Below, in pieces: positions 13,349 to 63,212 of a stretch of DNA of 64,000 nucleotides. Location of the stretch: positions 62,001 to 126,000 of the forward strand of contig NZ_NVWY01000001.1 in assembly GCF_002733835.1 (NCBI RefSeq), read 5' to 3'. A program made the translations under genes and the position numbers. Origin of the DNA: Alcanivorax sp. Its GTDB lineage: Bacteria > Pseudomonadota > Gammaproteobacteria > Pseudomonadales > Alcanivoracaceae. Under the pieces are notes generated by a model. That model had not been told where the DNA came from and did no database searches. It worked only from the letters and a program-made list of their open reading frames with translations. How positions within the stretch are numbered: position 1 is the first letter of the stretch; each line of letters opens with the position of its first letter.

Positions 13349-13383
13349 CAGCGTGTTGCATGCTGCGTGAAGCATGCTGCAGC
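13349..13383 (-). repeat. Heptad-period repeat, family 3
   Basis: Five 7-base units on the plus strand: CAGCGTG, TTGCATG, CTGCGTG, AAGCATG, CTGCAGC. The array lies downstream of the 3' end of the minus-strand gene at 13468 and beyond its terminator. The same unit types recur at 57618 and 55375. Confidence 0.75.
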
Positions 13384-13393
13384 CGCAGAGCGG

Positions 13394-13424
13394 CAAAAAA
13401 AAGGGCCGGCAAAGTGCCGACCCT
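13394..13424 (-). terminator. Terminator of the COG3687 gene
   Basis: On the minus strand AGGGTCGGCA pairs with TGCCGGCCCT around a short loop and is followed by a run of eight T. It lies 45 bases after the stop of the gene ending at 13468 and marks host sequence to the right of the prophage. Confidence 0.85.
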
Positions 13425-13467
13425 GAAAGTCACCGGAAAAGGGAGAGCTCGGTGAATTGGAAAACGG

Positions 13468-14313
13468 TTAAGCGGCTTCCTCTTTGAGGAGGTTGCCAAG
13501 CAGGGCCTCGAAGTTTTGCAGCTGCTCGCTGTTATCGTGATCCCACGGATGAAAACCGGGTTTGAACCAGTCGAACCAGGGCTTGGTGATGTTCAGGAAA
13601 ATCCCTTTGCGGCCCCAGGTGTGTTTGGCCACGGCGCGCCAGCCTTTCAGGTCGGTCAGGCCGCCCTTGATGCGCACGTTATGCAGGTAGAAGGGAATGA
13701 ACAGGGCAAAGAAAATGCCAGTGGCCAGCACCAGGGTGCCGCTGCGCAGTGCGTAGGCGCCCAGGTTGCTGTCGTCGCCGATCACCGTGCGGTACACATC
13801 GAAGGCCACGGCCTTGTGTTCGGTTTCTTCCAGGGCGTGCCAGTTCCAGATCGCCTTGTAGCCTTCGTCGGCGCCTTCCATGATCTCGGGCAGATCCAGC
13901 AGGCCGCCGCCGAGAATGGCGGTCAGGTGTTCCAGTGCTACGGTGGCAGCCAGCTGAAAGGCTTTGGGGCTATATTGCTGGGCGGCCCCAAGCAGCTTGG
14001 CAACGAAAGCTTCCTGGGCATGCAGCGGAATCCCTGCCTGGGCCACGAAGTCGTTGTACTCTTCGTGCTCACGGCCGTGCATGGCTTCCTGACCGATAAA
14101 GGCAGTGACTGCCTTTTTCAGTTCCGAATCGGTAATCTGGTCGCGATAGTGGCGGACGCTATCGATAAAGAAGCGCTCACCCACCGGGAAGAACAGACTC
14201 ATGGTATTGAGGAACTGGCTGACATTCAGGCCGTCCCGGTGCCAGGTAAGGGCCTTGGCCGGGTTCAGGTTGAATTTCAGGTTGCGGCGTATGGGCAGAA
14301 TTGAGATCGCCAT
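13468..14313 (-). CDS. COG3687/PF10118 ferritin-like predicted metal-dependent hydrolase
   Basis: 281 residues from ATG 14313, with GGAGGG upstream; the frame is open further upstream but lacks family sequence. Metal-ligand-like residues are spaced as in a ferritin-like helical bundle: QEAMHGREHEEYNDF (75-89, E76 and H79), LEHLTA (127-132) and HALEETEHKAVAFD (159-172). A hydrophobic segment lies at about 194-211. The family is annotated as metal-dependent hydrolase, but the substrate is unknown. It is common in oil-degrading and lipid-accumulating gammaproteobacteria. It diverges from the gene at 14400. Confidence 0.85.
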   Translation of the reverse strand: MAISILPIRRNLKFNLNPAKALTWHRDGLNVSQFLNTMSLFFPVGERFFIDSVRHYRDQITDSELKKAVTAFIGQEAMHGREHEEYNDFVAQAGIPLHAQEAFVAKLLGAAQQYSPKAFQLAATVALEHLTAILGGGLLDLPEIMEGADEGYKAIWNWHALEETEHKAVAFDVYRTVIGDDSNLGAYALRSGTLVLATGIFFALFIPFYLHNVRIKGGLTDLKGWRAVAKHTWGRKGIFLNITKPWFDWFKPGFHPWDHDNSEQLQNFEALLGNLLKEEAA

Positions 14314-14399
14314 CGTGCGTCCCTCCGTAACTGTTACATCATTCAATGATACAATTGCTGTGCGCAGCATCAAGAACTTTTCATCGGGAAATGCAAAAA

Positions 14400-15395
14400 A
14401 TGGCGGGTAATAAACAGGAAGTGGCAAATCGTTTACTGGATGGGCTGGTCGATTATCTGCTGGCGCGTCTCTCGCCGGAACAGCTGGATTCACTGGTGGT
14501 TGAGGAGCTGGACTACGTGCTTGAGCGGGCGGCGGGTTATTCCCTCAACCAGTGGGTGCAAGCTGAGCAGGTGTTTGCCACGGCGCAGAAATACGCGGTG
14601 GAGATGGATATCAGCGGCGCGATTCCTGAGCTGGTGGGCGATATGGTGGAACGGTTTTATGACCACGCCATCCAGAGTGAGCGCACCGTGGAGGATGTGG
14701 TCGACGAAGCCGTAGTGATGGCGCTGCTGGACAAGGGGCTGGAAATTCCCCTGTCGCGGCAAGGCATGGCCTGGCTGGGGCGTAACCCGGTGCTGCTGGC
14801 CTTGCTGGCAGGCGGTGCGCAACTGGGGCTCAAGACGTTGCTGCATCAGGGGCTGCCCGGCCCCCTGCGCAGCCAGCTGAGCAAGCGCTTGCCGGAACGC
14901 TGGCTGGCCAGCCTGGAGGCACGACTGCAGGAATGGTTACTGCGTCGCACGGAGCAATTGTTGAGTGATCCGTACCTGTATCGCGACGAGAACCTGGATG
15001 AGTTGCGCGAGTTGGTGAAGGTGGGCTGGCAGGACTTTTCCCAGCGCCCGGTGGCGGACCTGAAGGAGCTGGTGAGCAGCGAGGATATTCAGGAGCTGTT
15101 CGTGATCGTGTTCGAGTACTGGCGGGATCTGCGCCACACGGATTACTTCAATGCCATGCTGGAAGCGGGCGTGCAGGCGTTTTTCGATAAATATGGTGAT
15201 ACCAGCCTCACTGGCCTGCTGGATGAGCTGGGCGTCACCCGCGAGCTGATGCTTGATGATGCCCGCCGCTTCCTGCCGCCAGTGATGGCCAAGCTGCAGA
15301 GCGAAGGGCTGCTGGAGGCGTGGCTGCGTCGGCACTTGGAAGGGTATTTTCGGGCGGAGGAGACGATAGAGCTGCTGGGATCAGTTGACAGTTGA
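14400..15395 (+). CDS. Conserved helical protein of unknown function
   Basis: Starts at ATG 14400 or ATG 14391; GGGA lies upstream, but the spacing suits neither start perfectly. About 331 residues, mostly alpha helix rich in Leu, Glu and Arg; a mildly hydrophobic stretch near 125-145 (NPVLLALLAGGAQLGL) may touch the membrane. No family recognised. It diverges from the COG3687 gene and may share its promoter region. The last four residues (SVDS) and the stop are encoded by a heptad repeat array, and an IS element begins 20 bases further on, so the native 3' end may have been altered. Confidence 0.75.
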   Translation: MAGNKQEVANRLLDGLVDYLLARLSPEQLDSLVVEELDYVLERAAGYSLNQWVQAEQVFATAQKYAVEMDISGAIPELVGDMVERFYDHAIQSERTVEDVVDEAVVMALLDKGLEIPLSRQGMAWLGRNPVLLALLAGGAQLGLKTLLHQGLPGPLRSQLSKRLPERWLASLEARLQEWLLRRTEQLLSDPYLYRDENLDELRELVKVGWQDFSQRPVADLKELVSSEDIQELFVIVFEYWRDLRHTDYFNAMLEAGVQAFFDKYGDTSLTGLLDELGVTRELMLDDARRFLPPVMAKLQSEGLLEAWLRRHLEGYFRAEETIELLGSVDS

Positions 15396-15416
15396 TAGTG
15401 GACAGTTGACAGCGTG
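15382..15416 (+). repeat. Heptad-period repeat, family 1
   Basis: Units CAGTTGA, CAGTTGA, TAGTGGA, CAGTTGA, CAGCGTG in strict 7-base period. The second unit contains the TGA stop of the gene at 14400. The IS3 element starts at 15415. A 28-base stretch is identical to the array at 23165 read in the sense of plsC. Confidence 0.85.
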
Positions 15417-15447
15417 GAGTGCCCCCGATTTAGTAGACACCTAATGA

Positions 15448-16260
15448 TTAAACGGTCGCAGCATAGGCACTGGGGGAAACTCCTCCCAGTGCCATGTGCC
15501 GACGCACATTGGGATAGTACTGGTCCGTATAGTAACGAACTTCGCTCGCCATTTCGTCTCGGCCTATCTCTCCAAGAGGGCGAGTCCACTCCTTTTTTAG
15601 CAAGGCAAAGACACTCTCGGCACAAGCATTGTCCCAGCAGTTGCCGCGCCGGGACATGCTGATGGTCACCTTTCTGTCATTGAGCCAACTCAGCACCTCT
15701 TCACTACGATATTGGCTGCCTTGGTCTGAGTGGAACAGCAAATCACGCCCCGCAGGTTTCTGGCGCCTCCAGGCCTGTTTCAGCGCCGCTATAACCAATT
15801 GTGAGCAGTTAACCGGCCCCATCGCACGGCCCACGATCTGACGAGTCCCCAGATCCAGCACAACGGCAATGTAGAGCCAGCCTTCTTGGCAGCGGATCTG
15901 GGTAATATCCGACACCCAGACACGGTTGGCCTTCCCAACCGAGAACTGGCGATTCAGCAGATTGGGCAACACCGGTAGAGACGACTTGGCCTTGCGGTAG
16001 CCGGGCTTGGGCGCCGTACGCGAACGGTAGCCCGCCGCCTGCAGCAACCGCTGAACCTGATTTTTCCCACAGCAAAACCCCGCATCCTGGGCATGCAGCC
16101 AGAGCTTACGGTAACCCGGTATGCTTTGCTGACGACGAGCCTCTTTCAGAAGGAAGGCCAAGAGGGCGTCATCGCGCCTCTGTTTTGGCCCCGGACAACG
16201 CTGACGCTCCCGCCAACGGTAATAGCCTGCTCGTGAGACATCGAGTACTGCGCACATCAC
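15448..16260 (-). CDS. IS3-family transposase ORF B (DDE integrase domain)
   Basis: 270 residues. It has a helical HTH_21-like start (LDVSRAGYYRWRERQR), and then the rve core: VSDITQIRCQEGWLYIAVVLD (first Asp), LLFHSDQGSQY (second Asp) and RGNCWDNACAESVFALLKKE (Glu), the DD(35)E catalytic triad of IS3 transposases. It is expected to be made as an OrfAB fusion by -1 frameshifting in ORF A; the fused frame passes through FAFIDACRSQAWPV just before the first ATG here. The full-length triad suggests a working enzyme. Confidence 0.93.
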   Translation of the reverse strand: MMCAVLDVSRAGYYRWRERQRCPGPKQRRDDALLAFLLKEARRQQSIPGYRKLWLHAQDAGFCCGKNQVQRLLQAAGYRSRTAPKPGYRKAKSSLPVLPNLLNRQFSVGKANRVWVSDITQIRCQEGWLYIAVVLDLGTRQIVGRAMGPVNCSQLVIAALKQAWRRQKPAGRDLLFHSDQGSQYRSEEVLSWLNDRKVTISMSRRGNCWDNACAESVFALLKKEWTRPLGEIGRDEMASEVRYYTDQYYPNVRRHMALGGVSPSAYAATV

Positions 16261-16307
16261 CGATACCGGCCAGGCTTGGCTACGGCAGGCATCGATGAAG
16301 GCAAATC

Positions 16308-16625
16308 TTATTTGCCGTGCTTGGCGAAGTACTCGTCCGCCTTTTTTAGGATTTCATTCTCCAGCTCGGCTCGCTTGAGCTGCTTTTTCAGGCGAGAAAT
16401 CTCTCCTTCCAGGTCTTTGAGGCTTTTATCGGGTCCCGTGTTCTGGACGGATTTAGCAGACGGTTTCTTGGTCACAATCCATTCTCTTCGCCAGCGGCTT
16501 AACAATTTTGGGTGTATGCCTAGCTTGCCAGCTAGTGCGGACTGTGTCTGCGTGGTGGATAGCGAGGCCTGCACGGCCTCGCGTTTGAAATCATCGCTGA
16601 AGTAGCGCTTGGCTTTGTATTTCAT
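16308..16625 (-). CDS. IS3-family transposase ORF A (HTH)
   Basis: 105 residues from ATG 16625 with GAGAAGG upstream. The N-terminal helix-turn-helix (FSDDFKREAVQASLSTTQTQ, then ALAGKLGIHPKLLSRWRREW) binds the IS ends, and a leucine-zipper coiled coil (KSLKDLEGEISRLKKQLKRA) follows. The slippery heptamer A AAA AAG in the LKK codons (plus-strand 16341-16347) allows the -1 shift that joins it to ORF B. It overlaps the ORF B frame by the usual amount. Confidence 0.92.
   Translation of the reverse strand: MKYKAKRYFSDDFKREAVQASLSTTQTQSALAGKLGIHPKLLSRWRREWIVTKKPSAKSVQNTGPDKSLKDLEGEISRLKKQLKRAELENEILKKADEYFAKHGK
16341..16347 (-). promoter_or_regulatory. Programmed -1 frameshift site of the IS3 element
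   Basis: On the minus strand CTA AAA AAG in the ORF A frame gives A AAA AAG. A -1 slip continues as KGGRVLRQARQIRFAFIDAC into ORF B. This is the standard IS3/IS911 signal. Confidence 0.8.
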
Positions 16626-16681
16626 GACACCTTCTCTCCAAATGAAGGTGTCTACTTTTTCCGGGGCATTCCAACCGCGCA

Positions 16682-16713
16682 ACTATTCACTATTCACTGT
16701 TAACTATTAACTG
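16682..16713 (-). repeat. Heptad-period repeat, family 1 (diverged)
   Basis: Plus-strand units ACTATTC, ACTATTC, ACTGTTA, ACTATTA, ACTG. It lies immediately downstream of the dctM stop (16718). Read in the dctM sense it gives CAGTTAA, TAGTTAA, CAGTGAA, TAGTGAA, the same family as the arrays at 15382 and 23165. Confidence 0.8.
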
Positions 16714-16717
16714 CCTT

Positions 16718-18007
16718 TTACCGCACCAACCAAAGACTGAGCTGCGGGATATAGGTAATCATCAACAAGGCGATGATCAATATCAGCATGAAGGGAATCG
16801 TTGCTGCGAACAGCTCGGTGACTTTCTTCTTGAAGCGGTAACTGGCGATAAACAGGTTCATGCCCACCGGCGGAGTGATATAGCCGATCTGCATGTTCGC
16901 CACGAAGATGATCCCCAGGTGCACCGGGTCAATGCCGTAACGCAACGCCACCGGCAGGATCAGCGGCACCATAATCACCAGCGCGGCAAAGATATCCAGC
17001 AACGCGCCCAGCAACAGCAGCAGGATATTGAGCAGGATAAGGAAGGTAATCTTGCTCTCAACATGTGTCTGGATCAGGGCAAACAATTTCTCCGGCACAC
17101 CGGCATACACCAGGTAATCCGAGAAAGCCTGCGCCACCGCCAGAATCAGCAAAATACCGCCCACCATGATCATGGAATCGCGCATGATGGTCGGTAGCTT
17201 GCGCAGCGAGATTTCCCGATACAGAAACACCTCGGCCACCAACACATACAGCGCCGTCACCGCCGCCGCTTCACTGATCACCAGGAAACCGGAGAAGATC
17301 CCACCGAGCACTACCAGCGGCAGCGGCAGCTCCCAGCGTGCTTCCCAGAGCGCATCGACCAGCTCCCGGAAATCAAACGCCTGCCGGGGAACATCGGTGC
17401 CCCGCGTGGCCCACACACAGTAACCGTAAAGCAGCACGATCATCAGCAGCGCAGGCAGCAGACCAGCCAGATACAGATCGACAATTTCTACCGTCGGCAT
17501 ATCCAGCTGCTGGGACATTTGCTGGGCGATAATGCCGTAGATCAACAAGGGCACCGACGGCACCAGCAACAACCCCAGACTGCCCGAGGAGGTCACCAGG
17601 CCCAGGCTGAATTTTTCCGGGTAATTGCCTTTCACCAGCGCCGGCAGCAACAAGGCGCCCAACGCCACAATGGTGACACCGGAGCCGCCAGTCAGGGCGG
17701 TGAAGAACGCACAAGCAATCAGCGCAACAAAGGCCATGCCACCGGGCATCCAGCCGAACGCGGCCTGGCTGAGCCGCAACATGCGGTCGGCGGTTTTCGA
17801 TTCACTCAGCAAAAAACCGGCGAAGGTAAACAGGGGCAACGCCATCAGCACCACGGAATTACTGAGCTGATAGATGTCGATGTGCAGCACCGCCAACTCG
17901 ATTTCCAGAGTATAGAAACCCAGTGCGGCTGCGCCGAGAATAATGGCAAACAGGGGCGCGCCCATCAGCGCCAGCACCACCAGCAGGACAATCGCCGCAA
18001 TGATCAT
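16718..18007 (-). CDS. dctM: TRAP transporter large permease, DctM subunit
   Basis: 429 residues, the usual DctM length, with about twelve hydrophobic helices. DctM-family signatures include the N-terminal LALMGAPLFAII, GGSGVTIVALGALLLPALV near 110-130, and VNLFIAS-like GMNLFIASYRFKK near the C terminus. It forms the ion-coupled inner-membrane channel of the transporter. ATG 18007 overlaps the dctQ stop (ATGA), so the two are coupled. A heptad array follows its stop. Confidence 0.93.
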   Translation of the reverse strand: MIIAAIVLLVVLALMGAPLFAIILGAAALGFYTLEIELAVLHIDIYQLSNSVVLMALPLFTFAGFLLSESKTADRMLRLSQAAFGWMPGGMAFVALIACAFFTALTGGSGVTIVALGALLLPALVKGNYPEKFSLGLVTSSGSLGLLLVPSVPLLIYGIIAQQMSQQLDMPTVEIVDLYLAGLLPALLMIVLLYGYCVWATRGTDVPRQAFDFRELVDALWEARWELPLPLVVLGGIFSGFLVISEAAAVTALYVLVAEVFLYREISLRKLPTIMRDSMIMVGGILLILAVAQAFSDYLVYAGVPEKLFALIQTHVESKITFLILLNILLLLLGALLDIFAALVIMVPLILPVALRYGIDPVHLGIIFVANMQIGYITPPVGMNLFIASYRFKKKVTELFAATIPFMLILIIALLMITYIPQLSLWLVR

Positions 18008-22965: not shown

Positions 22966-23149
22966 GGCAGGGCAATGTCCTTGTGAGTAAAAAGACATGG
23001 TATCCGAGCTTAAAGGTGTGGCGCCAGATAACAGGGAGGAGGAATACAGTGGACAGCGAAAAGAAGGAAAACCCTTCTCTGTTTGGAAAGCCAGGCAGCC
23101 GCACCCAAATGCTGAGCGCCGCCTCAAGCATTGAAAACAAGGACAAAAA

Positions 23150-23965
23150 TCAACCGCGAGCTTTCAACTGTCCACTATCAACTGTCAACTGCTCTGCTAC
23201 CCGTCCATGCGCCTGCACAGACAGCGCCTTGCGATCCATGCCTTCCCCATCCAGAGGCGTACAAGAATGCAAGCGTATGCGGATTTTTTGGCGGAGCAGC
23301 ATAGCCCACAAGTGATGGTGGAACTCATCGTCACCAATAAAGGCCAGCCCCGGATCCGGGGCGCCCATGCTATCCAGGTAGCGTACCGCTAACGGTTGCA
23401 CCGGCACGCCCGCCAGCAAGGGGGCATCGAACAATTGCGGGAAAAAGCGGCGCAGGCTGGAGCCATCGGTGGTGGTGCCTTCCGGGAACACCAGTACCGT
23501 GTGCCCCTGCTGCAAGCGGCTGGCGATTTCCTGGGCCTTGCGGACGGACTCACCACTGCCGCGCTTGATAAACAGGGTACCCATGGCCCGGGCCAGGGTG
23601 CCGATCAACGGCCAGTCACCCACCTCCGCCTTGGAGAGAAAATACAGATGCCGCTGGCTGGCAATCACAGGAATATCCAGCCACGACACATGGTTACTAA
23701 CCAGAAACACCGGGGCTTCCACCCGGCTCCCCGTGACCGTCAACTCCACCCCGAGGATACGCAGAAAACGCCGGCACCAGCGTTGCTTGGCGGCCAACAC
23801 CACAGGCCGATACGGTGACCAGAACGCCCCCAGCAAAAACGCCAGTATAAAGCCCCACAACAGGTAGAGGACAACGCGGATCACCCGCACCATGCGACGC
23901 AGTTGCGGCCAGAGGCCGCTTTGCGGATAAGGACTGACGCTGACGCTATCGTTCATTTCACTCAT
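23150..23965 (-). CDS. 1-acylglycerol-3-phosphate acyltransferase-like protein (PlsC/OlsA type)
   Basis: 271 residues. One or two hydrophobic helices (28-48) anchor it to the inner membrane. Acyltransferase motifs are NHVSWLD (His92, Asp97), FIKRGSGES (132-140) and [10 protein letters not shown] (160-169). It moves an acyl chain to a lysolipid. Because the next gene upstream encodes an OlsB-like enzyme, it may be OlsA, which adds the second chain of ornithine lipid, rather than a second PlsC. The last ~13 residues ([13 protein letters not shown]) are encoded by a family 1 heptad array and are probably not part of the original enzyme. Confidence 0.88.
23165..23192 (-). repeat. Heptad-period repeat, family 1, inside the plsC 3' end
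   Basis: Plus-strand units CAACTGT, CCACTAT, CAACTGT, CAACTGC. In the gene sense it reads CAGTTGA, CAGTTGA, TAGTGGA, CAGTTGA, identical to the array at 15382 over 28 bases. It is translated as the enzyme's C-terminal tail. Confidence 0.85.
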
Positions 23966-23996
23966 GCCTCTGGGCCGGTTTCCAGGGTTTCGCTGT

Positions 23997-24021
23997 CAAC
24001 TGTCCACTATCCACTGTCAAC
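23997..24021 (-). repeat. Heptad-period repeat, family 1
   Basis: Plus-strand units CAACTGT, CCACTAT, CCACTGT, CAAC. It lies within 6 bases of the stop of the OlsB-like gene (24027), between it and the downstream plsC start, with the same orientation to the preceding gene as the other family 1 arrays. Confidence 0.8.
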
Positions 24022-24026
24022 GGGCT

Positions 24027-24893
24027 TCACACCGCCTGGGCCGGCTGCATGAAGTGCTGCACATAACGGGCGGGCAAGTCCTCCACCGCCATCAGCACAA
24101 AGAAATCCAGGCAGTTAAAATCCGGGTCCCAGCACGGCTCACCGCACACTTGAGCTCCCATGCGCAGGTAGGCCTTGAGCAGCGGCGGCATTTTCACACT
24201 CTCCGCCTGGGTATCTCCTGGTAGCGCCTGTAACCGCAGATGCGGCTGCACGCGATGCCCTGCCTGGCTCAGGTGCCGCGCCTGGATACGCTGATTAACC
24301 GCTGCCACGTTATAGCCTTCACTCAGCGCGATACTGGCGCAGCCCAGCAGGTAGCGCACATCGTTTTCCAGCATGTACTGCGCCAGCCGCGCCCACAGCA
24401 CACTGATAACGGCCCCGTTGCGGTGTTCCGGGTGAATACAGGTGCGGCCGATTTCTGCCAGCTTGCCCTCCAGCTGGCTCAGCATGGTCAGATCAAATTC
24501 ACCGCTGGAATAGAAGCCTCCGGTCCGGTGCAAGCGCTCACCCGGCAGCACGCGGGTGTAACCCACGATTTCCCCGTTACGGTTATCGCGGACCACCAGA
24601 TGCAGGCAGTGGCGATCAAAACGGTCCCGGTCGAGGCCGAACGGGGCACTGAAACTGGCACCATACTCTTGGGAGAAGATGCGATAGCGCAGGCGCTGGA
24701 TTTTCAGAATTTCCCGGCGCGAGCGGGTGAAATAGGCCGTGAAGCGGCCCGGCGCCGGGGCCTCAAGCGCCCTCTCCGCGGCCATGTCGCGGGGAAAGCG
24801 AAGAATCTCGGCGGTGGCCACGAACGGCTTGGTGAAGGCCCCTTTCAATTGCGGGCTTAACGCTTTGATCTTTCCTGCAGCTTGCGCAAGCAT
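24027..24893 (-). CDS. OlsB-like ornithine N-acyltransferase (GNAT fold)
   Basis: The start ATG 24893 has GGAG seven bases upstream (an in-frame GTG lies four codons earlier). 288 residues. The core is an acyl-homoserine-lactone-synthase/GNAT-like domain: LRYRIFSQEYGASF, DRFDRHCLHLVVRD, GEIVGYTRVLPG, EIGRTCIHPEHRNGAVISVLW. This is the OlsB pattern, the acyl-ACP-dependent first step of ornithine-lipid synthesis. The C-terminal part (LKAYLRMGAQVCGEPCWDP) also fits. Its neighbour is the PlsC/OlsA-like gene, consistent with an olsBA pair. Confidence 0.85.
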   Translation of the reverse strand: MLAQAAGKIKALSPQLKGAFTKPFVATAEILRFPRDMAAERALEAPAPGRFTAYFTRSRREILKIQRLRYRIFSQEYGASFSAPFGLDRDRFDRHCLHLVVRDNRNGEIVGYTRVLPGERLHRTGGFYSSGEFDLTMLSQLEGKLAEIGRTCIHPEHRNGAVISVLWARLAQYMLENDVRYLLGCASIALSEGYNVAAVNQRIQARHLSQAGHRVQPHLRLQALPGDTQAESVKMPPLLKAYLRMGAQVCGEPCWDPDFNCLDFFVLMAVEDLPARYVQHFMQPAQAV

Positions 24894-45700: not shown

Positions 45701-48202
45701 CCCCAGCGAGAGAGGATCAAACCGAAACAAAGTGTCCGAGCTGTGTTCACCTGTGTCGCCATAAATGGCATCCATGGCAGAGCCAAAGCTAAACGCGACG
45801 CCTTCTCTCTCAGCACCATTACTCACTTTCTCAGCATCGATAGTGAGCTTACCACCTGCACTAACCAGCGCGTTGATTACGGTTTCTGTCAGAATATTCG
45901 TATGACTGGTTGCTCCACCACGGTTGCAGCTTACCCGACTACTATCACATAAATACCAATTTTCTGAGGTCGGAATGGTCGTGTAGGTGTAATATTTTTT
46001 CTTGGTACCTCCTCCGGAGCTCTTCTTTCTTAGCCAAGATTTATCGACACGAGCCACCTCCTTTAAACCAACCATATACGCTGTATTTTCGAAACGACTT
46101 GCCTTAATAGCTATGTCGTTACTCGCCGCAATTACGCTGGCATTATTAAACAGATAATCCCCCACAAGCCAAAGATCACTACCAGCCAAGAGTTTTGATT
46201 GTCGAGGCGAGGAATAAGACTGTACGATTTGTCTTTGATATTTATGACGGTAGGTCGTGTTATGACAGGCACTGTTTCTATTTCGATTAAAACAACGACG
46301 GTCATACTCTCTGTCATAGCTATAAACAGGATCATCCCAAACGATTTCAACTTCTGGTTCACTGGCCAGCCTTTGCTCGAACTCTGCTGCCACAATGCGG
46401 ATTTTTCCTTCACTGGCAATTAGTCCGGATTCATTGTTCACTCGCCGTGCCCAGCTGGACTTATCTTCCCAAATAGCATCCATAATCTCCGAGAGATAAC
46501 TACCTGCAACATCCAAATTTCCTACAGCATAAATATCCCCGTAGTTATCCAGATCATCCAGGTATAGCGCCATCTCACCGGCGGACAATAATAGAGAGTG
46601 CGTTCCATTTCGTAACCTTTCACCGCTAAAGGTCAGACTTTGAAGCCCCGCCATGTCTCCATGATTTTCCAGGTCACTTACTGCCAGGCTCATATCACCT
46701 GCAGAGCTAAACACACCCTCATTACGCAATTCGTTGGCAGTAACTGACACATCACCATGCACCTGCCAATCAGCTTCAGGGCCAATGGATACTGTTTCCG
46801 CGTTCAAATTAAACGCATCATCAGCACTTACTTCACCTCTATGTACATAGTTTTGGGTCGTTAGCGATATCGCCTGGCCTGCCTGTAACGCTCCCGCCTC
46901 GTTGTTCAATTCTCCCGTTGTAATTTCCAGATACCCAACAGCATCAATTTCCCCGCTATTGACGAGGCCGTTAGTGGCGCTGACTTTCACTTCACCCTGA
47001 CCCGCCACTTTGCCTGTATTGGTAAAACTCTCAGTTGCTATCTCTGCTGCACCCCCAGCCAGAACGTCGCCATTATTGGTTACATGTTCTTCCGCCAGAA
47101 TGGTTACCTGATCTTCACCGGTTACGGAAACATCGCTCTCGACACGGGTCTGGTCAGAAATGATCGTTATTGCATCAGCATTAACATCATTACCTTGAAG
47201 ATGGATGTTCCCAGCATTCATCGATAAATGCCCTTCAGCGGCGATACTTCCCACTGCGCTCACAGCGCCTAACGACGCAACCTGCATATCTCCTTTCGCA
47301 CTGGCGTCAGCAAAAACCACATCTCCCTGCGCCGACAACACCAAGTCCCCATTCTGCGCCGCCACCGGCGCATCCAGTTTCACCCCCACACCATCTTCAT
47401 TGGCGATAAGCCGAATGCGGTTGGCATACATGCCGCCCAGTGCACTGGAATCGATGGCAAAGCCCGGCTTGTTGGTGCCGGTGGTTTCATTCGAGATGGC
47501 CAGGGTGTCGCGGTCTACCCGTTGCTGGCCGGTGACGATGTTCAGTGAGTCTGCGTGCAGCTCGCCGGCCACCTTGACGGAGCGGGCGATGAGATCGAAG
47601 CGGTCGGTATTCGACCCGTTCAATCCGTTCTCGCCAATGCCAATACGGCCACCCTGCACATCAAACCCCTGCAGCTCCCCCCCTTCCATGATCGATTTAC
47701 CGGTGGTCAGGGTGGCGTGGTTGGTATTGATAAAGCCACAACCGTTACAGCTGATACCATTGGGGTTGGCCACTACCACATCGGCGCGGGCGCCGCCGAC
47801 TTCGATATAGCCCCCCAGATTGGACGGGTTCTGGCCGATGACTTCATTGAGAATCAGGCTGGCGGAGCCATTGTGCAGGTTCGGATTGCCTTCGATATAG
47901 CCACCCAGTTGGGTTTGCGTTACCTGCTGGCTGTTATTGAGAACAACGCCTTTGCTGCCGACGTTGAAATCGTTATAGAAATTTTGCGATACCCCTTTGC
48001 TGTTGGGGTTTTGAATATTGACCACGGGCACGCCATTGGCGGCTTCATCCATCGTCGGCCGCCCATTGGTGCCATGGGTGGGTGTGATGGGCTGTGCGGA
48101 CAGCAGCATGGGCTGCCAGATCAGCAACAACGACAACGTGTACACCAGACCACGACGGACCGGCTTGGCGGATGTCTCAGAATTCGGCATAAAGTGAGGC
48201 AT
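39746..48202 (-). CDS. cdiA: CdiA/filamentous haemagglutinin-type contact-dependent inhibition effector
   Basis: 2818 residues, exported by the two-partner route. A signal peptide (about 18-36) and TPS domain (37-300) carry the hallmarks NPNL and NPNGISCNGCGF. Haemagglutinin repeats (AGNDM, SAGGDLxx, GSxLxAxGxL patterns) follow to about 2200, broken by a 600-900 segment that would hold the receptor-binding part. The last 120 residues have RSLAGHGTLFTPDG and IIVPDGTAITLPRPG, similar to the Stv 'putative adhesin' domain of polymorphic toxins. No VENN motif was seen. The 3' 1.5 kb is AT-rich. The start overlaps cdiB. Confidence 0.9.
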   Translation of the reverse strand: MPHFMPNSETSAKPVRRGLVYTLSLLLIWQPMLLSAQPITPTHGTNGRPTMDEAANGVPVVNIQNPNSKGVSQNFYNDFNVGSKGVVLNNSQQVTQTQLGGYIEGNPNLHNGSASLILNEVIGQNPSNLGGYIEVGGARADVVVANPNGISCNGCGFINTNHATLTTGKSIMEGGELQGFDVQGGRIGIGENGLNGSNTDRFDLIARSVKVAGELHADSLNIVTGQQRVDRDTLAISNETTGTNKPGFAIDSSALGGMYANRIRLIANEDGVGVKLDAPVAAQNGDLVLSAQGDVVFADASAKGDMQVASLGAVSAVGSIAAEGHLSMNAGNIHLQGNDVNADAITIISDQTRVESDVSVTGEDQVTILAEEHVTNNGDVLAGGAAEIATESFTNTGKVAGQGEVKVSATNGLVNSGEIDAVGYLEITTGELNNEAGALQAGQAISLTTQNYVHRGEVSADDAFNLNAETVSIGPEADWQVHGDVSVTANELRNEGVFSSAGDMSLAVSDLENHGDMAGLQSLTFSGERLRNGTHSLLLSAGEMALYLDDLDNYGDIYAVGNLDVAGSYLSEIMDAIWEDKSSWARRVNNESGLIASEGKIRIVAAEFEQRLASEPEVEIVWDDPVYSYDREYDRRCFNRNRNSACHNTTYRHKYQRQIVQSYSSPRQSKLLAGSDLWLVGDYLFNNASVIAASNDIAIKASRFENTAYMVGLKEVARVDKSWLRKKSSGGGTKKKYYTYTTIPTSENWYLCDSSRVSCNRGGATSHTNILTETVINALVSAGGKLTIDAEKVSNGAEREGVAFSFGSAMDAIYGDTGEHSSDTLFRFDPLSLGFNLPGAHGLFIFNDDPGHLYLIETNPLFATLDGFLGSEYLINRLGMEPDQSVQRLGDSYYETTLVRDAVLAATGTRFLDPDFKSDEEQFRWLMDNAFAAAESLQLSVGVALTADQVNALQQDMVWLEEQDVAGYQVLVPVLYLAQGSAVMDGPQLRGEDVAISGDNVTNHGDIVAENSTAVVAEQGGITNAGSMVAGNTLDLKSAQDIQNLGGELVAQTLALDAGGNVEVATLADAVGDSLNWMTRLTEQAQLRADNLSVTSGGDIRLQGAKVDAGLLTLVADGDLSVESVAVSQGSHMDQGDVKFTQSKVRQLGSNLHSNLDMLLEAENDLSIMASDLDSEGDIQLKAQGDITVGYALESDSLYSYRKDDGSFGKSAKQTTESHSQRVVGSNLVALGDLLINANKNELGNLLGHSGAEGDINLTAANLESGGDTMIASGGELNLSSAANVYSYEQHKSKKGTISARQSGQSTLSITHQGTNLQSGGDVQIMGLNGIALENTDVSASGDLIASAGLYSTEKETLTNDQAGLLIRDVHDIYQYDSYKESSKADIGGMVASMATLGLGGGLATFNPLDFADVTKATVANALNGEKGYTQASGNYSATSQGSNLDAQGSLLLQSAGDMHIQGSTVSGLRDEGEGEVQIQGSTALLAGTLINPLDGQTVLENDEANLSIIAGEKHHSSYYKKEKFGVDYLGAAGGALTQMAGAATGVFTGDFSGPDDLPDDVSIKREGEERRIESVTLTQSVVQDSQHLTLSAGNDMTAVASQILSGGNMAMTAGGDVNLAAGLETLSDYQASYGNSFDNFTGGYDRGRLYAGIEGERYREETLFEQGKALGSLLQVSGLINMQVDGNVNVIGSDFIAGGLDADIGGEMRFGAAQGYERTTYKSTSEDTSLTAGVGNSYVDAAYAADDFVKASEDVKRAYDALQAAKDDPRITDIGDYEANLTLALLQQQAVGLQAATSVSGAIENAPAFGFYGDVQMATETTEHTSSSEALTHRGSQVQLGAGGMNLKGEALTLQGSRLDIHDGGGLDLDVDRFTVEAVADTYSNQSSTETHTSTLTVASSSRSNLAGAAAVDALSGGLGTQSSEQQSQSQYWQYGAVNVDGLMNLDVKDQTTIRGGNVWAREVAGNTGNLTVTSLQNTSTSEHSNRGLNLGGGQGFSANGGYNTASGSSERAWVDQVSSFHGEEAFNVTVDGHAQVDGAVISGGDPDNFTLDTGTFAYTDIQDYDRGSNSGWGVSTSFNPLDLKEQQKAPQGSTTLSAHRNGHDKEGITRATVGEGTLIVRDDDSDKNSNLAGLNRDTDNVQEITRNEITGGLDAELTVDHRLVTERGRKEIARDVSTTLGLPQDVVTSVIKVLGDRKITELGVLIHEHGLTRKLTEEIKRFPEYDALRKILADTMGVPEDQAADRLLTLLAEIGSVAADNPEQLQQAIAGFTEAGEQGTAQGVKDGSALKIALHQAVGEALGGADGASAAGTNEMLMPLLVDLAGNSPERLRALSRIVGGASTGNAQGAWIAEQGTTWNRQLHQNEVIAIREQAQAYAALHPGMTVAEALSDLLLEGLRQVDATYSDRIKANNEAAAFLVQIAHSDPNNSLVSTDGHKTALFQASDYDFGKFDAYEWEFWNVAKGIYPGGVEDPNMFFNILTDRENGLMLKGNGDAYYLSRGLFDKLSSESASKAGSQNLMILGSAVGTIGALRLTGLASAEAGLFASNPASYFYSQGHKLTLMADEMIAGMAGFPTGAVFGGGGALLLDDIASGGARYATTLWDEASRLGTFGRGGDSNPGQFRFFEVDSGTMPPEFVVANSNEVRTVNGSYWAESDFGPLTTTVEPTPLVINNLESGHSFARTVTEGGTGRSLAGHGTLFTPDGNIIVPDGTAITLPRPGISILDKTGRYIENGDWFGLSNAARTNERIVRDIEGMASWLPGAEIPNYTLSKPTKLNIYSRSTTTATPTTLDKVLSPNMGCVDWAACTAFFEY

Positions 48203-55374: not shown

Positions 55375-55396
55375 TTGCGTGCAGCGTGTGGCGTTC
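55375..55396 (-). repeat. Heptad-period repeat, family 3
   Basis: Plus-strand units TTGCGTG, CAGCGTG, TGGCGTT ending exactly at the stop codon of the small gene at 55397. A weaker run (GGCATGC, TGCACGC, TTCAACG) lies near 55187, after dinB. Confidence 0.65.
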
Positions 55397-55612
55397 CTAG
55401 TGCACCCTCTGACAAACCCGGTCGTGCAGATGCGCCGGAATCAGCCCATCCATCAATTCCCGGCCACGGCGCTGTACCGGCTCCATTTGCGCATCCAGGT
55501 AGGCATCCAGCGTGGCCACACAATCGGCGCAACGGGTGACGGTGGCCGAATCCGGGTGCTCGGACGCCGCTTTCACGGCCTGTTCCAGTTGGTTCAAATA
55601 TTTGAGCAACAT
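55397..55612 (-). CDS. Small conserved-looking protein, unknown
   Basis: 71 residues from ATG 55612 with AGGAGC seven bases upstream. It is alpha-helical throughout and has cysteines 28, 31 and 67 (TRCADCVATLD holds a CXXC). No family recognised. GC-rich third positions and a good ribosome site support it being real. It sits alone after dinB on the opposite strand. Confidence 0.6.
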   Translation of the reverse strand: MLLKYLNQLEQAVKAASEHPDSATVTRCADCVATLDAYLDAQMEPVQRRGRELMDGLIPAHLHDRVCQRVH

Positions 55613-57617: not shown

Positions 57618-57652
57618 TTGCATGTAGCGTGACGCGTGCTGCGTCTCCTGTG
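57618..57652 (-). repeat. Heptad-period repeat, family 3
   Basis: Plus-strand units TTGCATG, TAGCGTG, ACGCGTG, CTGCGTC, TCCTGTG, ending at the TAG stop of the SDR gene (57653). Its first unit equals one in the array at 13356. Confidence 0.75.
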
Positions 57653-58423
57653 CTACCGCGGCTGCATACGGATACCGCCATCGATACGGATGGTTTCGCC
57701 GTTGAGGAATTTGTTCTCGATCATGTGGCACACCAGCTGACCATATTCCTGCGGATGCCCCAGGCGTTTCGGGAACTGGGTCATTTCGATCAGCGGCTGC
57801 TTCACCTTGTCCGGTGCCGCATTCATCAGCGGGGTGTTGAAAATCCCCGGGGCGATGGTATTGCAACGGATACCCAGTGGCGCCAGATCACGGGCGATGG
57901 GCAGCGTCATGCCGACCACGCCGCCTTTGGTTGCCGCGTAAGCAACCTGACCAACCTGGCCATCAAAGGCTGCTACCGAGGCGGTATTCACAATCAGGCC
58001 GCGCTCGTTATCTTCACCCGGCTCATTCTCGGCCATGGCTGCCGCCGCCAGGCGCGCCACATTGAAAGTACCGATCAGGTTGATCTGCACCACCATGTTG
58101 AATACGCCCAGATCGTGCGGCTTGTTCTCGCGGCCCACGGTTTTCATGGCAGAACCCACACCGGCGCAGTTAACACACACATGAATGGCACCAAACTTGG
58201 CCACGGTGGCCTCCACCGCGGCTTTAACCGAGGCTTCGTCTGTCACGTCAGTCTGGGTGAAGGCTGCATTATCACCAAGCTGGGCCGCCACTTCCGGGCC
58301 TTTCTTGTCGTCACGATCAAAAATCATGACCTTGCCGCCCTTGGCAATAATCGCTTCTGCAGTCGCCTGGCCCAGGCCTGAGGCACCACCCGTAATCACG
58401 GCCACTTTATCGGTAATATTCAT
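57653..58423 (-). CDS. Short-chain dehydrogenase, 3-hydroxyacyl-CoA dehydrogenase-like
   Basis: 256 residues. Nucleotide-binding TGGASGLG (11-18) and NNAG-like NCAGVG (85-90), catalytic Ser149, Tyr162 and Lys166 (YAATKGG). The close overall match to HSD17B10-like enzymes (DRDDKKG after strand 2 favours NAD) suggests 3-hydroxy-2-methylacyl-CoA or 3-hydroxyacyl-CoA oxidation in fatty acid or branched-chain catabolism. It is monocistronic. Confidence 0.88.
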   Translation of the reverse strand: MNITDKVAVITGGASGLGQATAEAIIAKGGKVMIFDRDDKKGPEVAAQLGDNAAFTQTDVTDEASVKAAVEATVAKFGAIHVCVNCAGVGSAMKTVGRENKPHDLGVFNMVVQINLIGTFNVARLAAAAMAENEPGEDNERGLIVNTASVAAFDGQVGQVAYAATKGGVVGMTLPIARDLAPLGIRCNTIAPGIFNTPLMNAAPDKVKQPLIEMTQFPKRLGHPQEYGQLVCHMIENKFLNGETIRIDGGIRMQPR

Positions 58424-60902: not shown

Positions 60903-61046
60903 CGGGAACGTAAAAGCTGTGCCCCCCGATTGCGCAAATAGTGTGAACCGGTTCCAGTGCCGTTATACTGAGCGGCGTTTTTCTGTCCATACTTGCCAAC
61001 GATAATAAATGGGGCTGCGGTGATAACCGTGGCATAGGGAGATCGG

Positions 61047-61571
61047 ATGCTTGAACTGATCAGCGCAGCGCGCCGGCGTAAACGCCCGCCTACGCACCAG
61101 TTGTTTGATGTGGTCACCATGGAATTCCGGGTGGGCCTGCTGGATATCGACCTGAACATGCATCTGAACAACGCCAAATACCTTAAGTTCATGGACCGTA
61201 GCCGGCTGGAACATGCCGTGGTCACCGGCTTGCTCAACCGCATGCTCGAAGCCCGCTGCAACGGTGTCGTGGCCAATACCGAAATTGCCTATATCCGTGA
61301 ACTGCGCCCCTATCAGCAATTTCAGGTGCATACCCGGATCCTCGGCTGGGACGACAAATACGTGTACTACGACCAGCGTTTTGAATCCCAGCGCAAACTG
61401 CACACCCACGCCCTGCTGCGCGTTGCCAATGTCTACGGTGGCAAATCGGTGAGCCCACAGACGGTGCAGGAAATGACCGGCATGAACCTGACCTCCCCCG
61501 CCTTGCCGGAATATGTGGAGCAATGGAAGCGTTTGCTGCAGACCAAGCGGCGGTTGACGGAAAGCGACTAG
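61047..61571 (+). CDS. Hotdog-fold acyl-CoA thioesterase-like protein
   Basis: 174 residues from ATG 61047 (GGGAGA upstream). The core LLDIDLNMHLNNAKYLKFMD (LDxxxHxNNxxYL) is the 4HBT_2/THEM6-type hotdog signature, and the length fits. It probably hydrolyses an acyl-CoA, but several of these proteins have no proven activity. The gene is followed by a heptad array and a palindromic terminator. Confidence 0.85.
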   Translation: MLELISAARRRKRPPTHQLFDVVTMEFRVGLLDIDLNMHLNNAKYLKFMDRSRLEHAVVTGLLNRMLEARCNGVVANTEIAYIRELRPYQQFQVHTRILGWDDKYVYYDQRFESQRKLHTHALLRVANVYGGKSVSPQTVQEMTGMNLTSPALPEYVEQWKRLLQTKRRLTESD

Positions 61572-61578
61572 CGACCTG

Positions 61579-61615
61579 GCTACGAGCTACGAGCTACGAG
61601 CTACGAGCTACGAGC
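61579..61615 (+). repeat. Heptad-period tandem repeat, family 2 (5 exact units)
   Basis: Five exact copies of GCTACGA start 7 bases after the thioesterase stop codon. Confidence 0.95.
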
Positions 61616-61653
61616 AGCAAGATAGCCCAAGATACGAATAAAACAACCGCCCA

Positions 61654-61691
61654 ACAGTAAAAAGCCCCGAACGTTCGGGGCTTTTTACTGT
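61654..61691. terminator. Perfect 38-base palindrome, bidirectional terminator
   Basis: ACAGTAAAAAGCCCCGAAC joined to its exact reverse complement with no spacer. It has GC core and A/T outer arms, so each strand ends in a T run. It stands between convergent genes. Confidence 0.92.
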
Positions 61692-61695
61692 TCAC

Positions 61696-61730
61696 CTAGC
61701 CACTAGAAGCTCGCAGCTCATAGCTGCTTA
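61696..61730 (-). repeat. Heptad-period repeat, family 2
   Basis: Plus-strand units CTAGCCA, CTAGAAG, CTCGCAG, CTCATAG, CTGCTTA; the last includes the TAA stop of the DUF2846 gene. Confidence 0.8.
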
Positions 61731-62321
61731 TTCCGTCGAATAGGTATAAAACGGCGCCCAGCGCTTCTCTTTCACGCCACTGCCACCGTAATACACCCCC
61801 GGCTCATCCAGCCGCAGATCGGCGATTTCCCGCAGCGCCAGCGCGCGGGGCACCTGTTGCAGTGGCCCGGCCTGCTGGTAGTCTTCCGGGTTGGCAACCA
61901 GCTCTTCCATATCCAACGGACGGGTTTCCGAATAGCGGAAGAAGTATTCCTGCCCACCATCCACCTTCAATGGCATCTCAAACACCATCTTCAGATACAA
62001 CACACTGAGCGGGCGGCGAGCATAGAAATCGTGGGTGCCCGCGGGCAGTTCCAGCCATTCATAGGCACCGGCCTTCAGGCCGAACAATTGGGAGGAATCC
62101 ATGAAAAATACCGGCGCCTGGACTTCTTCGTAGCCCCAGCGGGTAATCGGACGGTAGATATAGACCATGGCATTACGTGGATCGAGCGTATCCATGGGGG
62201 CAAAGGTTTTCCCCTTCGGCGCATCCAGGAACGCCCCGGGGGTGGAAGGAATCCCCATTCCCACTCCAGAACAACCCGAAATAACCCAAAGGCAAGCCGC
62301 CAGCAGCACAGCCAATCGCAT
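61728..62321 (-). CDS. DUF2846 lipoprotein
   Basis: 197 residues with signal peptide and lipobox ISGC (Cys17). The DUF2846 region (AMVYIYRPITRWGYEEVQAP; ELPAGTHDFYARRP; GGQEYFFRY) is clear. It is an envelope lipoprotein of unknown role. Its stop lies within the terminal unit of a heptad array. It is convergent with the thioesterase. Confidence 0.88.
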   Translation of the reverse strand: MRLAVLLAACLWVISGCSGVGMGIPSTPGAFLDAPKGKTFAPMDTLDPRNAMVYIYRPITRWGYEEVQAPVFFMDSSQLFGLKAGAYEWLELPAGTHDFYARRPLSVLYLKMVFEMPLKVDGGQEYFFRYSETRPLDMEELVANPEDYQQAGPLQQVPRALALREIADLRLDEPGVYYGGSGVKEKRWAPFYTYSTE

Positions 62322-62563
62322 TATTATTCTCCAGCGTTGCCATATCCGGTGCTCCCGGATCGGCCCTGTTTATTATTGCGTGCAATATAAAAGCATTTTG
62401 ATGGCCCAACTATGGCCGATTTACCCGCATTGCTCAAGCGCGAGAGGCCCGGCATGCCGGCTCTGGGGCCCGCCCCATACGGCGTGGCGGGCAAGCGCTC
62501 AATTTACCGGCAACCGACCAGCGCCGCTCTCCCAGAGCCGGGGTTTTCTGTTAGGATTTCGCC

Positions 62564-63064
62564 ATGGCAGTAAATCGAATCCACACCCCCTGTATTGGCG
62601 TCTGTTCCACCGTTTTCGGTGACACGGTTTGCCGTGGCTGTCGCCGTTTCAGCCACGAGGTGGTGCACTGGAATGGCTATACCAACGAGGAAAAGACCAT
62701 CGTCTGGCGGCGCTTGAACCTGCTGCTGTGTCAGGTGGTGGACAACTACTTTGTGGTAGCGGACGCCGACCGCCTGGCCGCCGAGCTCGATTTCCAGAAC
62801 CTGCGCTATCAGACCCAGCTGTCCCCCCAGGGCTGGGTACCAGAGTTGCTCAAGGCTGCGGGTTCCAAGATGATTCCCTACGACCACTTTGGTCTGCACG
62901 CCCTCCCCCCCACCGAAGCCATGACCCCGCGCCAGCTGTACGACCAGATCAGCGCCGAATGCCACGCCCTGTCCCAGGCGCACTACGACCGTTCCTACGC
63001 CCGCCCGGTGACTCTGGTAGCAGAACTCACCGAGCACGCCGCCCGGGAGAAGGGGTTGATCTAG
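62564..63064 (+). CDS. DUF1289 Fe-S-cluster-like small protein
   Basis: 166 residues. The N terminus has TPCIGVCS and CRGCRRFSHEVVHW, with cysteines 10, 14, 23 and 26, the DUF1289 signature. The remaining 110 residues are unusual for the family, which is often only 60-90 residues, and have no recognised domain. The TAG stop is the first stop in a heptad array. Confidence 0.85.
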   Translation: MAVNRIHTPCIGVCSTVFGDTVCRGCRRFSHEVVHWNGYTNEEKTIVWRRLNLLLCQVVDNYFVVADADRLAAELDFQNLRYQTQLSPQGWVPELLKAAGSKMIPYDHFGLHALPPTEAMTPRQLYDQISAECHALSQAHYDRSYARPVTLVAELTEHAAREKGLI

Positions 63065-63106
63065 CTTCTAGCTTCTAGCTTCTAGCTTCTAGCTTCTAGC
63101 TTCTAG
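63061..63106 (+). repeat. Heptad-period tandem repeat, family 2 (6.5 exact units)
   Basis: Six exact copies of CTAGCTT and a partial CTAG. The first CTAG contains the TAG stop of the DUF1289 gene. Confidence 0.95.
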
Positions 63107-63184
63107 TACATGATCGCCAAGGCATTCGTTGGAGCAACAACGAAACGCAAAAAAGCGCCAACACCTGAAGGATCATTGTTTTAA

Positions 63185-63212
63185 CTCGCCGCTAGAAGCT
63201 CGCCACTTGCTC
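63185..63212 (-). repeat. Heptad-period repeat, family 2, inverted
   Basis: Units CTCGCCG, CTAGAAG, CTCGCCA, CTTGCTC. It faces the array at 63061 as a rough inverted copy across 78 bases. Confidence 0.65.

What the first reader, a model, noticed from the sequence alone, without database searches (positions are those of the whole stretch)
13349..63212. A set of intergenic arrays with strict 7-base period sits at gene 3' ends in fixed orientation
At least eleven arrays (13349, 15382, 16682, 23165, 23997, 55375, 57618, 61579, 61696, 63061, 63185) are built of 7-base units. They fall into three families: CAGTTGA/TAGTGGA; GCTACGA/CTAGCTT; TTGCATG/CAGCGTG. Ten of the eleven follow the 3' end of a gene, most of them on or within tens of bases of its stop codon, and within a family the orientation to that gene is mostly the same. 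Perfect tandems (61579, 63061) look recent, others decayed. Heptad STRR repeats are known from cyanobacteria; I do not know of a described class like this in a gammaproteobacterium. A 3'-end-targeted repeat, or a role in mRNA ends or termination, are possible explanations.
Basis: partly seen in the sequence, partly recalled or inferred. Interest (0 to 1): 0.8.

Follow-up and report, generated by a model that had tools for sequence, protein, structure and literature searches.

The report
Seven-base repeats ending intergenic palindromes
The seven-base repeats are real and common at gene ends in this marine bacterium, and many are the two mirror-image ends of small repeated DNA elements lying between genes; similar repeats with the same orientation occur in distant bacteria, so a known but unexplained repeat class gains an anatomy.

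Summary
In 864 kb (24%) of this genome, 7-base periodicity in noncoding DNA is far above chance (51 segments; six shuffles averaged 0.0). Arrays overlap or abut stop codons: 39 of 70, expected 14.9, sd 3.2.

They are two things. (1) The CAGTTGA/TAGTGGA family is no simple tandem: its arrays are 4x7 = 28-bp end arms of about 160-bp, gene-free, dispersed palindromes. Paired arms point inward (21 of 21); of 79 arms with at least four units 76 have exactly four. One exact 28-mer recurs 53 times in relative G201, while cores between exact arms are about 66% alike. Window arrays 15382, 16682, 23165 and 23997 are such arms. (2) GCTACGA/CTAGCTT arrays behave as slippage repeats (two units fewer at 61579 in the nearest relative). 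TTGCATG/CAGCGTG is the reverse complement of an ACGC family.

Heptamers near 3' ends are already described in Xanthomonas, and a related heptamer in Beggiatoaceae, so that novelty claim fails. The mirrored-end anatomy, an inward polarity shared with other phyla, and whole-element replacement at fixed sites seem new. The mobilising factor was not found; a terminator role is weakly supported.

The parts
15382..15412 (+). Left arm, AGTTGAC subfamily; 15383-15410 is the exact 28-mer AGTTGACAGTTGATAGTGGACAGTTGAC; holds the stop codon of ORF 14400-15395
15413..16669 (-). Insertion sequence with HTH_Tnp_1 and rve ORFs (IS3-like by recall) between two arms of different subfamilies; edges approximate
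   Evidence: synteny with G013 begins only beyond it
16681..16712 (-). Right arm, AGTTAAC subfamily; 5 bp beyond the stop of ORF 16718-18007 (DctM)
23048..23190 (-). Palindromic element at the 3' end of ORF 23150-23956 (acyltransferase): 28-bp arm at 23163-23190 (1 mismatch to the 28-mer), other arm shorter by 21 bp (three heptads) than in the G010 ortholog; low end approximate
23994..24022 (-). Lone decayed arm (28-mer with 2 mismatches) 5 bp beyond the stop of ORF 24027-24893 (GNAT acetyltransferase)
61579..61615 (+). Perfect (GCTACGA)5.3 array 7 bp after the stop of ORF 61047-61571; two units fewer in G013, other heptads or none at the same site in congeners
61659..61686 (.). Inverted repeat with A- and T-tracts (terminator-like) between the two arrays; a comparable hairpin lies there in several congeners
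   Evidence: sequence
61696..61726 (-). Decayed AGCT-type array beside the stop of ORF 61728-62258
63060..63106 (+). Perfect (TCTAGCT)6.7 array holding the stop codon of ORF 62564-63064; G013 has a different repeat at this place
63185..63215 (-). Decayed AGCT-type array, possible inverted partner of 63060
57618..57650 (-). Decayed array of the ACGC family (reads as ACGC from the minus-strand gene), 3 bp beyond the stop of ORF 57653-58423
13349..13380 (-). Decayed ACGC-family array between convergent ORFs
55375..55400 (.). Weak ACGC-like array (10/19 lag-7 matches); may be chance

Best explanation
The heptads of the CAGTTGA/TAGTGGA family are the terminal inverted repeats of a family of gene-free, dispersed, palindromic intergenic elements: four related heptads (28 bp), a short GCG-rich border, a core with its own hairpin (inner gap most often 104 bp), then the mirror image, about 160 bp in all (shown). 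Copies are many, whole elements are replaced by other subfamilies at the same site, and in a rich genome the 28-bp arms stay nearly uniform while the cores drift (shown by comparison). I infer that the arms are recognition sites of a factor acting in trans, a recombinase or transposase that binds tandem heptads, so that these are MITE-like passengers. They sit between stop codons because coding and promoter DNA exclude them, and because an arm that reads stop codons in most frames can close a gene it lands in (inferred). Other heptad arrays (AGCT, partly ACGC families) grow and shrink by whole units through slippage, giving the perfect tandems at 61579 and 63061 (unit-step change shown at 61579).
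For: Inward pairs only: 21 FR, 0 RF/FF/RR within 250 bp among 70 arms. Length 151-164 bp in 15 of 21 paired elements, six exactly 160, inner gap mode 104. Exactly four units in 76 of 79 arms with at least four, none of identical units; 27 three-unit runs (reversed-sequence control: 3 of three, 3 of four, 1 of six units); AGCT runs range to 14 units and 13 of 28 with at least four are perfect. Among the 70 longest BLAST rows shown of 631, AGTT-element regions align at 62-75% over 153-187 bp, several pairs in both orientations. Exact 28-mer: G201 53, G010 19, G000 5 copies, reversed-pattern control 0. Up to 3 mismatches: G201 85 places, 53 exact, against 66% mean core identity in elements chosen for exact arms. 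Nearly confined to one family: 13 of 293 genomes match, 7 of 12 in family f1, six others with 1-11 matches. At three of four sites occupied in both G006 and G010 the elements are of different subfamilies between the same flanks. All 14 exact short elements read from G201 abut at least one stop. Unit-step change of 14 bp; 21-bp loss in one arm of the window element. An insertion sequence picks these elements out: 4 of 4 copies in G201 and the one own copy lie in them.
Against: No autonomous element was found: the long arm pairs read (window; L315, L327, L335 of G201) hold an insertion sequence that has its own ends. No consistent target duplication around the elements by eye. Identical arms around unlike cores are odd for simple transposition. 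No clean empty site beside an occupied one was seen. 28 arms are unpaired. Y1 (RAYT-type) transposases occur in element-poor genomes too, though not in G015, and the three own-genome loci have no heptads nearby.
Confidence: 0.62

Rival explanations
1. No transposition: palindromes grow in place. A terminator hairpin stalls replication; slippage with a 7-nt step lengthens a flank, and template switching across the hairpin copies it to the other side in inverted form. Ectopic gene conversion between copies keeps arms alike within a genome.
For: At the 61047-61571 3' end several congeners keep a similar terminator-like hairpin while arrays beside it differ by species (AGCTACG, AGTTTCG, AGCTGTG). 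Perfect arrays and unit-step changes. In-place replacement of whole elements. The two arms of an element are usually of one subfamily (by eye). Needs no transposase and suits a wide distribution.
Against: AGTT arms are fixed at four non-identical units in a set order, the same 28-mer at 53 loci and in two genera. Slippage gives variable, homogeneous arrays, as in the AGCT family.
Confidence: 0.25
2. Portable bidirectional terminator or 3'-end module kept by selection: arms and core form one long hairpin that ends transcription from both sides and insulates convergent genes.
For: 3'-end and convergent bias: of 86 arrays 23 lie between convergent and 3 between divergent genes. Outside the arms T is enriched at positions 4-6 (0.48, 0.53, 0.35 in Alcanivorax-type, 0.64, 0.64, 0.62 in G201/G010, against 0.23 and 0.20). 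Terminator-like hairpins on 13 of 64 element strands against 3.8 in shuffles.
Against: Convergent intergenic regions without heptads score as well or better: 36 of 124 strands, both strands in 12 of 62 against 2 of 32 elements. No T enrichment beside pairs of other phyla (9 of 30 ends T-rich, background 0.33). Polarity is inward also at 5' edges, which a 3'-end role does not predict. Rfam finds nothing in the window or in 7 further loci.
Confidence: 0.2
3. Ordinary heptanucleotide simple-sequence repeats produced by polymerase slippage; 3' bias is selection only.
For: Heptameric repeats are reported as over-represented in many bacterial genomes (a 2007 survey as cited in PMC4692102). Perfect arrays at 61579 and 63061; two units fewer at 61579 in G013.
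Against: Does not give fixed-length mirrored arms, near-constant spacing, a shared 28-mer or inward polarity.
Confidence: 0.15

Closest known systems
GGGAATC / GGGGA(C/T)T heptameric repeats of Xanthomonas and Nostoc (Rehm et al. 2015, PMC4692102; found passages and the transcriptome and discussion sections read)
   Same: Heptamers, intergenic, preference for four units, close to the upstream ORF; [quoted passage not shown] inverted pairs occur in Xanthomonas; no function found.
   Different: G-quadruplex-forming units; not described in what I read as terminal repeats of an element; our AGTT units have no G-runs.
TAACTGA direct repeats of Beggiatoaceae, Cyanobacteria, Bacteroidetes (MacGregor 2015, PMC4679880; abstract, first of five parts of the results, summary read)
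   Same: Related heptamer (reverse complement TCAGTTA against CAGTTGA), overlapping phyla, 2-6 units per set in the main genome.
   Different: Placed mostly before start codons and read as a possible translational signal; one inverted repeat listed, no arm pairs in what I read.
MITEs (miniature inverted-repeat transposable elements)
   Same: Short, gene-free, dispersed, terminal inverted repeats.
   Different: No parent element or target duplication found; arms are four tandem heptads; cores vary more than arms. A minisatellite inside a MITE of Porphyromonas gingivalis (PMC4596501, start of abstract seen only) is a near parallel.
REP/BIME palindromes with RAYT transposases (recalled; PMC3733652 start of abstract seen)
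   Same: Intergenic palindromes; REP-like hairpins lie inside some G201 elements.
   Different: No heptads near the three own-genome Y1 transposase genes.
STRR heptamers of heterocystous cyanobacteria (recalled)
   Same: 7-bp tandem units in intergenic DNA.
   Different: Not compared here beyond AGTKRAY hits in cyanobacterial records.

Membership tests
MITE | Terminal inverted repeats at both ends | tested here: met
   21 of 21 close arm pairs inward; exact mirrored 28-mers in 17 elements
MITE | Short, no coding capacity, many dispersed copies | tested here: met
   ~160 bp; tens to hundreds of arm matches in several genomes
MITE | Target-site duplication | tested here: inconclusive
   Flanks of 17 elements inspected by eye, none consistent
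MITE | Autonomous parent with the same ends | tested here: inconclusive
   Long arm pairs read hold an insertion sequence with other ends; sought only in fetched stretches
Heptameric repeat class of Rehm and MacGregor | 7-bp units in intergenic DNA near ORF ends | tested here: met
Heptameric repeat class of Rehm | Strand rule: downstream on coding strand, upstream on non-coding strand | tested here: met
   AGTT arms inward 64 of 68 in Alcanivorax-type sequence, 60 of 69 in other phyla
Heptameric repeat class of Rehm | G-quadruplex-forming G-runs | tested here: not met
   Units of the main families lack runs of three G (by inspection)
REP/BIME with RAYT | Palindromes flank or accompany a Y1 transposase gene | tested here: not met
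   No lag-7 array in the three own-genome Y1 loci; Y1 genes also in element-poor genomes
Intrinsic bidirectional terminator | Hairpin followed by a T-tract on both strands | tested here: inconclusive
   2 of 32 elements on both strands, 0 in shuffles, but 12 of 62 convergent regions without heptads
Known RNA family | Rfam match at gathering score | tested here: not met
   0 matches in the window and 7 loci
Integron attC | Recombination site recognised by an integron integrase | not tested
   Considered only because of position after stop codons

The most novel reading that the evidence does not exclude
Heptad arrays across bacterial phyla are one class: the ends of palindromic intergenic elements that read inward from the neighbouring gene at both 3' and 5' edges, kept alike within a genome and exchanged as whole cassettes at fixed sites by an undescribed, widespread factor that recognises four tandem heptads.
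Probability: 0.3. Interest if true: 0.8.

Novelty: new variant of a known kind. Interest (0 to 1): 0.55.

Why it matters
Heptamer repeats have been reported from cyanobacteria, Xanthomonas and giant sulfur bacteria without an agreed function or origin. Recognising them as mirrored element ends with a shared polarity turns a curiosity into testable questions: what recognises tandem heptads, how cassettes are swapped at fixed gene ends, and why the period is seven. It also gives a probe (an exact 28-mer) in Alcanivorax-type bacteria for finding the factor, and an insertion sequence that seems to recognise the elements.

Tried and rejected
Rejected or unsupported: simple slippage for the AGTT family (fixed four unlike units); a purely mRNA-sense signal (inward polarity also at 5' edges); stop-codon supply as the general function (AGTT arms at 3' ends close more frames in sense than antisense in 29 of 34 in the Alcanivorax set, 2 the other way, and 24 of 42 elsewhere, 6 the other way; other Alcanivorax heptads 8 for and 4 against of 22); G-quadruplexes (no G-runs); Rfam families; RAYT association; portable terminator as main explanation; the insertion sequence as the parent element (own ends). 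The tetramer-plus-three-variable-bases idea was dropped because choosing the register by the tetramer biases it. The strand rule by G/C content fails for non-AGTT heptads in Alcanivorax-type sequence (14 G-rich inward, 18 C-rich, 5 ties); ACGC arrays of the own genome read inward in 21 of 22, AGCT arrays show no rule (9 in, 8 out). In other phyla part of the non-AGTT excess comes from arrays overlapping ORF ends, where stops in the array can bias it (29 G-rich, 3 C-rich, 2 ties); wholly outside ORFs it is 14, 5 and 2 ties. A telomerase-like reverse transcriptase was considered and not tested. Some arrays scored in G013 are runs of N (three of 21 sites, and one array at a fourth). The first gene finders failed or missed genes and were replaced. 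Paper searches; no listed title or start of abstract describes heptad-armed palindromes; that is limited to that open-access library, those terms, and what the listings show.
Full report
Setting. The window is G000:C57:62001-126000 of a 3.596 Mb assembly in 64 contigs. Alcanivorax and Alloalcanivorax records appear in the named pattern scan, and relative G015, of the same genus as the window, is one contig of 3,120,143 bases, which is the size I recall for A. borkumensis SK2. I did not identify the species, and the genus rests on that recall.

Is it real? In 864 kb of the genome (window plus 40 stretches; 774 predicted ORFs, 85% coding) lag-7 segments were sought in 567 noncoding regions with 40 bp of gene on each side. 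51 reached the threshold; six dinucleotide shuffles gave a mean of 0.0; lags 3-6 and 8-13 gave 0-4; 14 and 21 are harmonics; coding DNA gave 1. A slightly lower threshold on all DNA gave 73 arrays. In 86 arrays with two neighbours the nearest gene edge was a 3' end in 65 and a 5' end in 21; 60 lay between codirectional, 23 between convergent and 3 between divergent genes, against 329, 92 and 108 such regions. Re-placing each of 70 arrays at random in its own gap (up to 16 bp into the genes), 39 overlap or lie within 8 bp of a stop (expected 14.9, sd 3.2) and 1 of a start (expected 7.8, sd 2.5).

What it is. Of 58 groups of arrays in the own-genome sample 15 hold two arrays within 250 bp; by eye these are inverted, two AGCT cases being ambiguous because the unit is nearly palindromic. 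For AGTT-type units, 21 pairs were found in G000, G013, G006 and G007 together, with 28 arms unpaired; 15 of 21 are 151-164 bp, six exactly 160, and the commonest inner gap is 104 bp. The common pattern is: purine-rich flank, four heptads, a GCG-rich border, about 28 nt, a hairpin of the type GAGGCCGCGCCC...GGGCGCGGCCTC, and the mirror image; not all cores hold that hairpin. Among the longest BLAST rows shown, such regions align with each other at 62-75% over 153-187 bp, several in both orientations. Close pairs are always inward: 21 FR against 0 RF, FF or RR. Unit number discriminates: AGTT runs number 37 of two, 27 of three, 76 of four and 3 of more units, and none of the 79 with at least four is made of identical units (reversed-sequence control: 68, 3, 3 and 1); AGCT runs range to 14 units and 13 of 28 with at least four are perfect. 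The third family is the reverse complement of ACGC units.

Dispersal. Lag-7 segments number 57 in 984 kb of G000, 16 in 280 kb of G013, 7 and 14 in 100 kb each of G006 and G007, 0 in 100 kb of G015, and 0 or 1 in 80-100 kb of each of six other genomes of the family and order. Pattern AGTKRAYx3 matches G006 163+146 times, G007 143+134, G000 16+17, G013 3+2; reversed control 0, 1, 5 and 0. In 293 genomes of the order 13 match: seven of twelve in family f1 (from 4+9 to 97+108), and six others with 1-11; five f1 genomes have none. The exact 28-mer AGTTGACAGTTGATAGTGGACAGTTGAC occurs 53 times in G201, 19 in G010, 5 in G000, 3 in G102, 2 in G008, 1 in G222, with no reversed-pattern match. With up to three mismatches there are 85, 43 and 29 places in G201, G010 and G000; the reversed control (66, 31, 12) is uninformative there because the unit is nearly its own reversal. 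Window 15383-15410 is one exact copy. In 94 within-genome pairs of elements chosen for exact arms, the interiors average 66% identity (46-84%). In one search all 14 exact short elements read in G201 abut at least one stop codon, 13 of 14 on the right side, and 2 of 3 read in G010 do (crude ORFs).

Turnover in place. G006 and G010 (87.5% identical over 98 kb) share four occupied sites; at three the arms and core belong to different subfamilies between the same flanks, at one they are orthologous; two G006 elements have no element at the site in G010, and two G010 elements had no flank match. The window element at 23048-23190 is the ortholog of one of G010's, with 21 bp (three heptads) missing from one arm, while G006 carries another subfamily there. 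Between G000 and G013 (92.0% over 172.5 kb) the 61579 array differs by 14 bp, one arm at C57:237524 is AGTT in G000 and CACGCAA-like in G013 while the other arm is identical (a run of N lies between in G013), and the 63060 array faces a different repeat. At the 61047-61571 3' end, congeners carry different heptads in the same place and direction, and some carry none.

An insertion sequence marks the elements. The window IS lies between two arms, without matching 3-bp flanks, at a synteny breakpoint, so the two arms probably come from two elements (inferred). G201 holds four copies of a related IS (HTH_Tnp_1 and rve ORFs; OrfB identical among them, 68% to the window's). Three lie between two heptad arms and the fourth beside one arm, at different places in the element, each between 3-bp repeats (GAC, TTC, CGC, AGA; my reading). 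A 44% homolog in G007 has no heptads nearby. Its ends differ from the arms, so it looks like an IS that targets the element rather than its parent.

Polarity and breadth. In these loci close inward pairs number 18 (three from Alcanivoracaceae records), RF 0, FF 1, RR 6. Near gene edges, AGTT arms outside Alcanivoracaceae (75 loci) read inward in 60 of 69, and other heptads are richer in G than C inward in 43, against 8, with 4 ties. Restricting to arrays wholly outside ORFs (1-25 bp), AGTT arms read inward in 23 of 27 at 3' and 13 of 15 at 5' edges, other heptads 14 against 5 with 2 ties; at 26-150 bp the rule is lost at 3' ends (4 in, 6 out) and kept at 5' (9 in, 1 out). The same strand rule is stated for GGGAATC repeats by Rehm et al. 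(PMC4692102). The named loci were chosen by an AGTT pattern, the ORF calls there are crude, and in Alcanivorax the G/C rule fails for non-AGTT heptads (14 against 18, 5 ties).

How it may work. Shown: mirrored four-unit arms, uniform arms with drifting cores in G201, site persistence with sequence replacement, unit-step change. Inferred: a trans-acting protein that recognises tandem heptads. Not found: the protein, a parent element, a target duplication, an empty site. Terminator-like signals are above shuffles (13 of 64 strands against 3.8) but not above convergent regions without heptads (36 of 124), so I do not adopt termination as the main role.

Prior art. Rehm et al. (passages, two sections) and MacGregor (abstract, part of the results, summary) describe similar repeats; both leave function open. 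The 2007 survey noting excess heptamers is known to me only through Rehm's text. PMC6749651, PMC4853749 and PMC3542288 were seen as found passages only. None of nine paper searches listed heptad-armed palindromes in titles or abstract starts.

Noticed in passing
window 15413-16669; L362, L365, L366, L367 (G201): An insertion sequence (HTH_Tnp_1 + rve ORFs) lies in heptad-armed elements in all 4 G201 copies and in the single own copy, at different places, with 3-bp flank repeats in G201: it seems to target these palindromes. The own copy marks a synteny breakpoint against G013.
   Followed up: partly
G201 loci L317, L319, L320, L323, L326, L331: Elements whose central hairpin is replaced by a REP-like pair (AAGCTTGCTTGCAAGCGAA...), i.e. 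one repeat class nested in another between the same 28-bp arms.
   Followed up: no
G006:C1 near 3849873-3850250; L336 1077-1538: Two longer arm pairs (gaps about 300 and 407 bp): the first holds another inverted repeat (AAGGAGCCCCTGAATAACTCCTTGC), the second a 118-codon ORF that was not examined.
   Followed up: no
L105, L106, L107: Three Y1 (RAYT-type) transposase genes, each beside GTAGGAGC- or GTAGGTCG-type palindromes rather than heptads.
   Followed up: partly
own contigs C4, C27, C35, C36; G013 loci with N in cores (e.g. entry 275084): Some contig ends and runs of N fall in or beside these palindromes, so draft assemblies may under-report them.
   Followed up: no
window 352-576: A 108-bp tandem repeat (2.1 copies) inside ORF 287-3214.
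   Followed up: no
window 39746-48202: A single ORF of 2818 codons on the minus strand; not examined.
   Followed up: no
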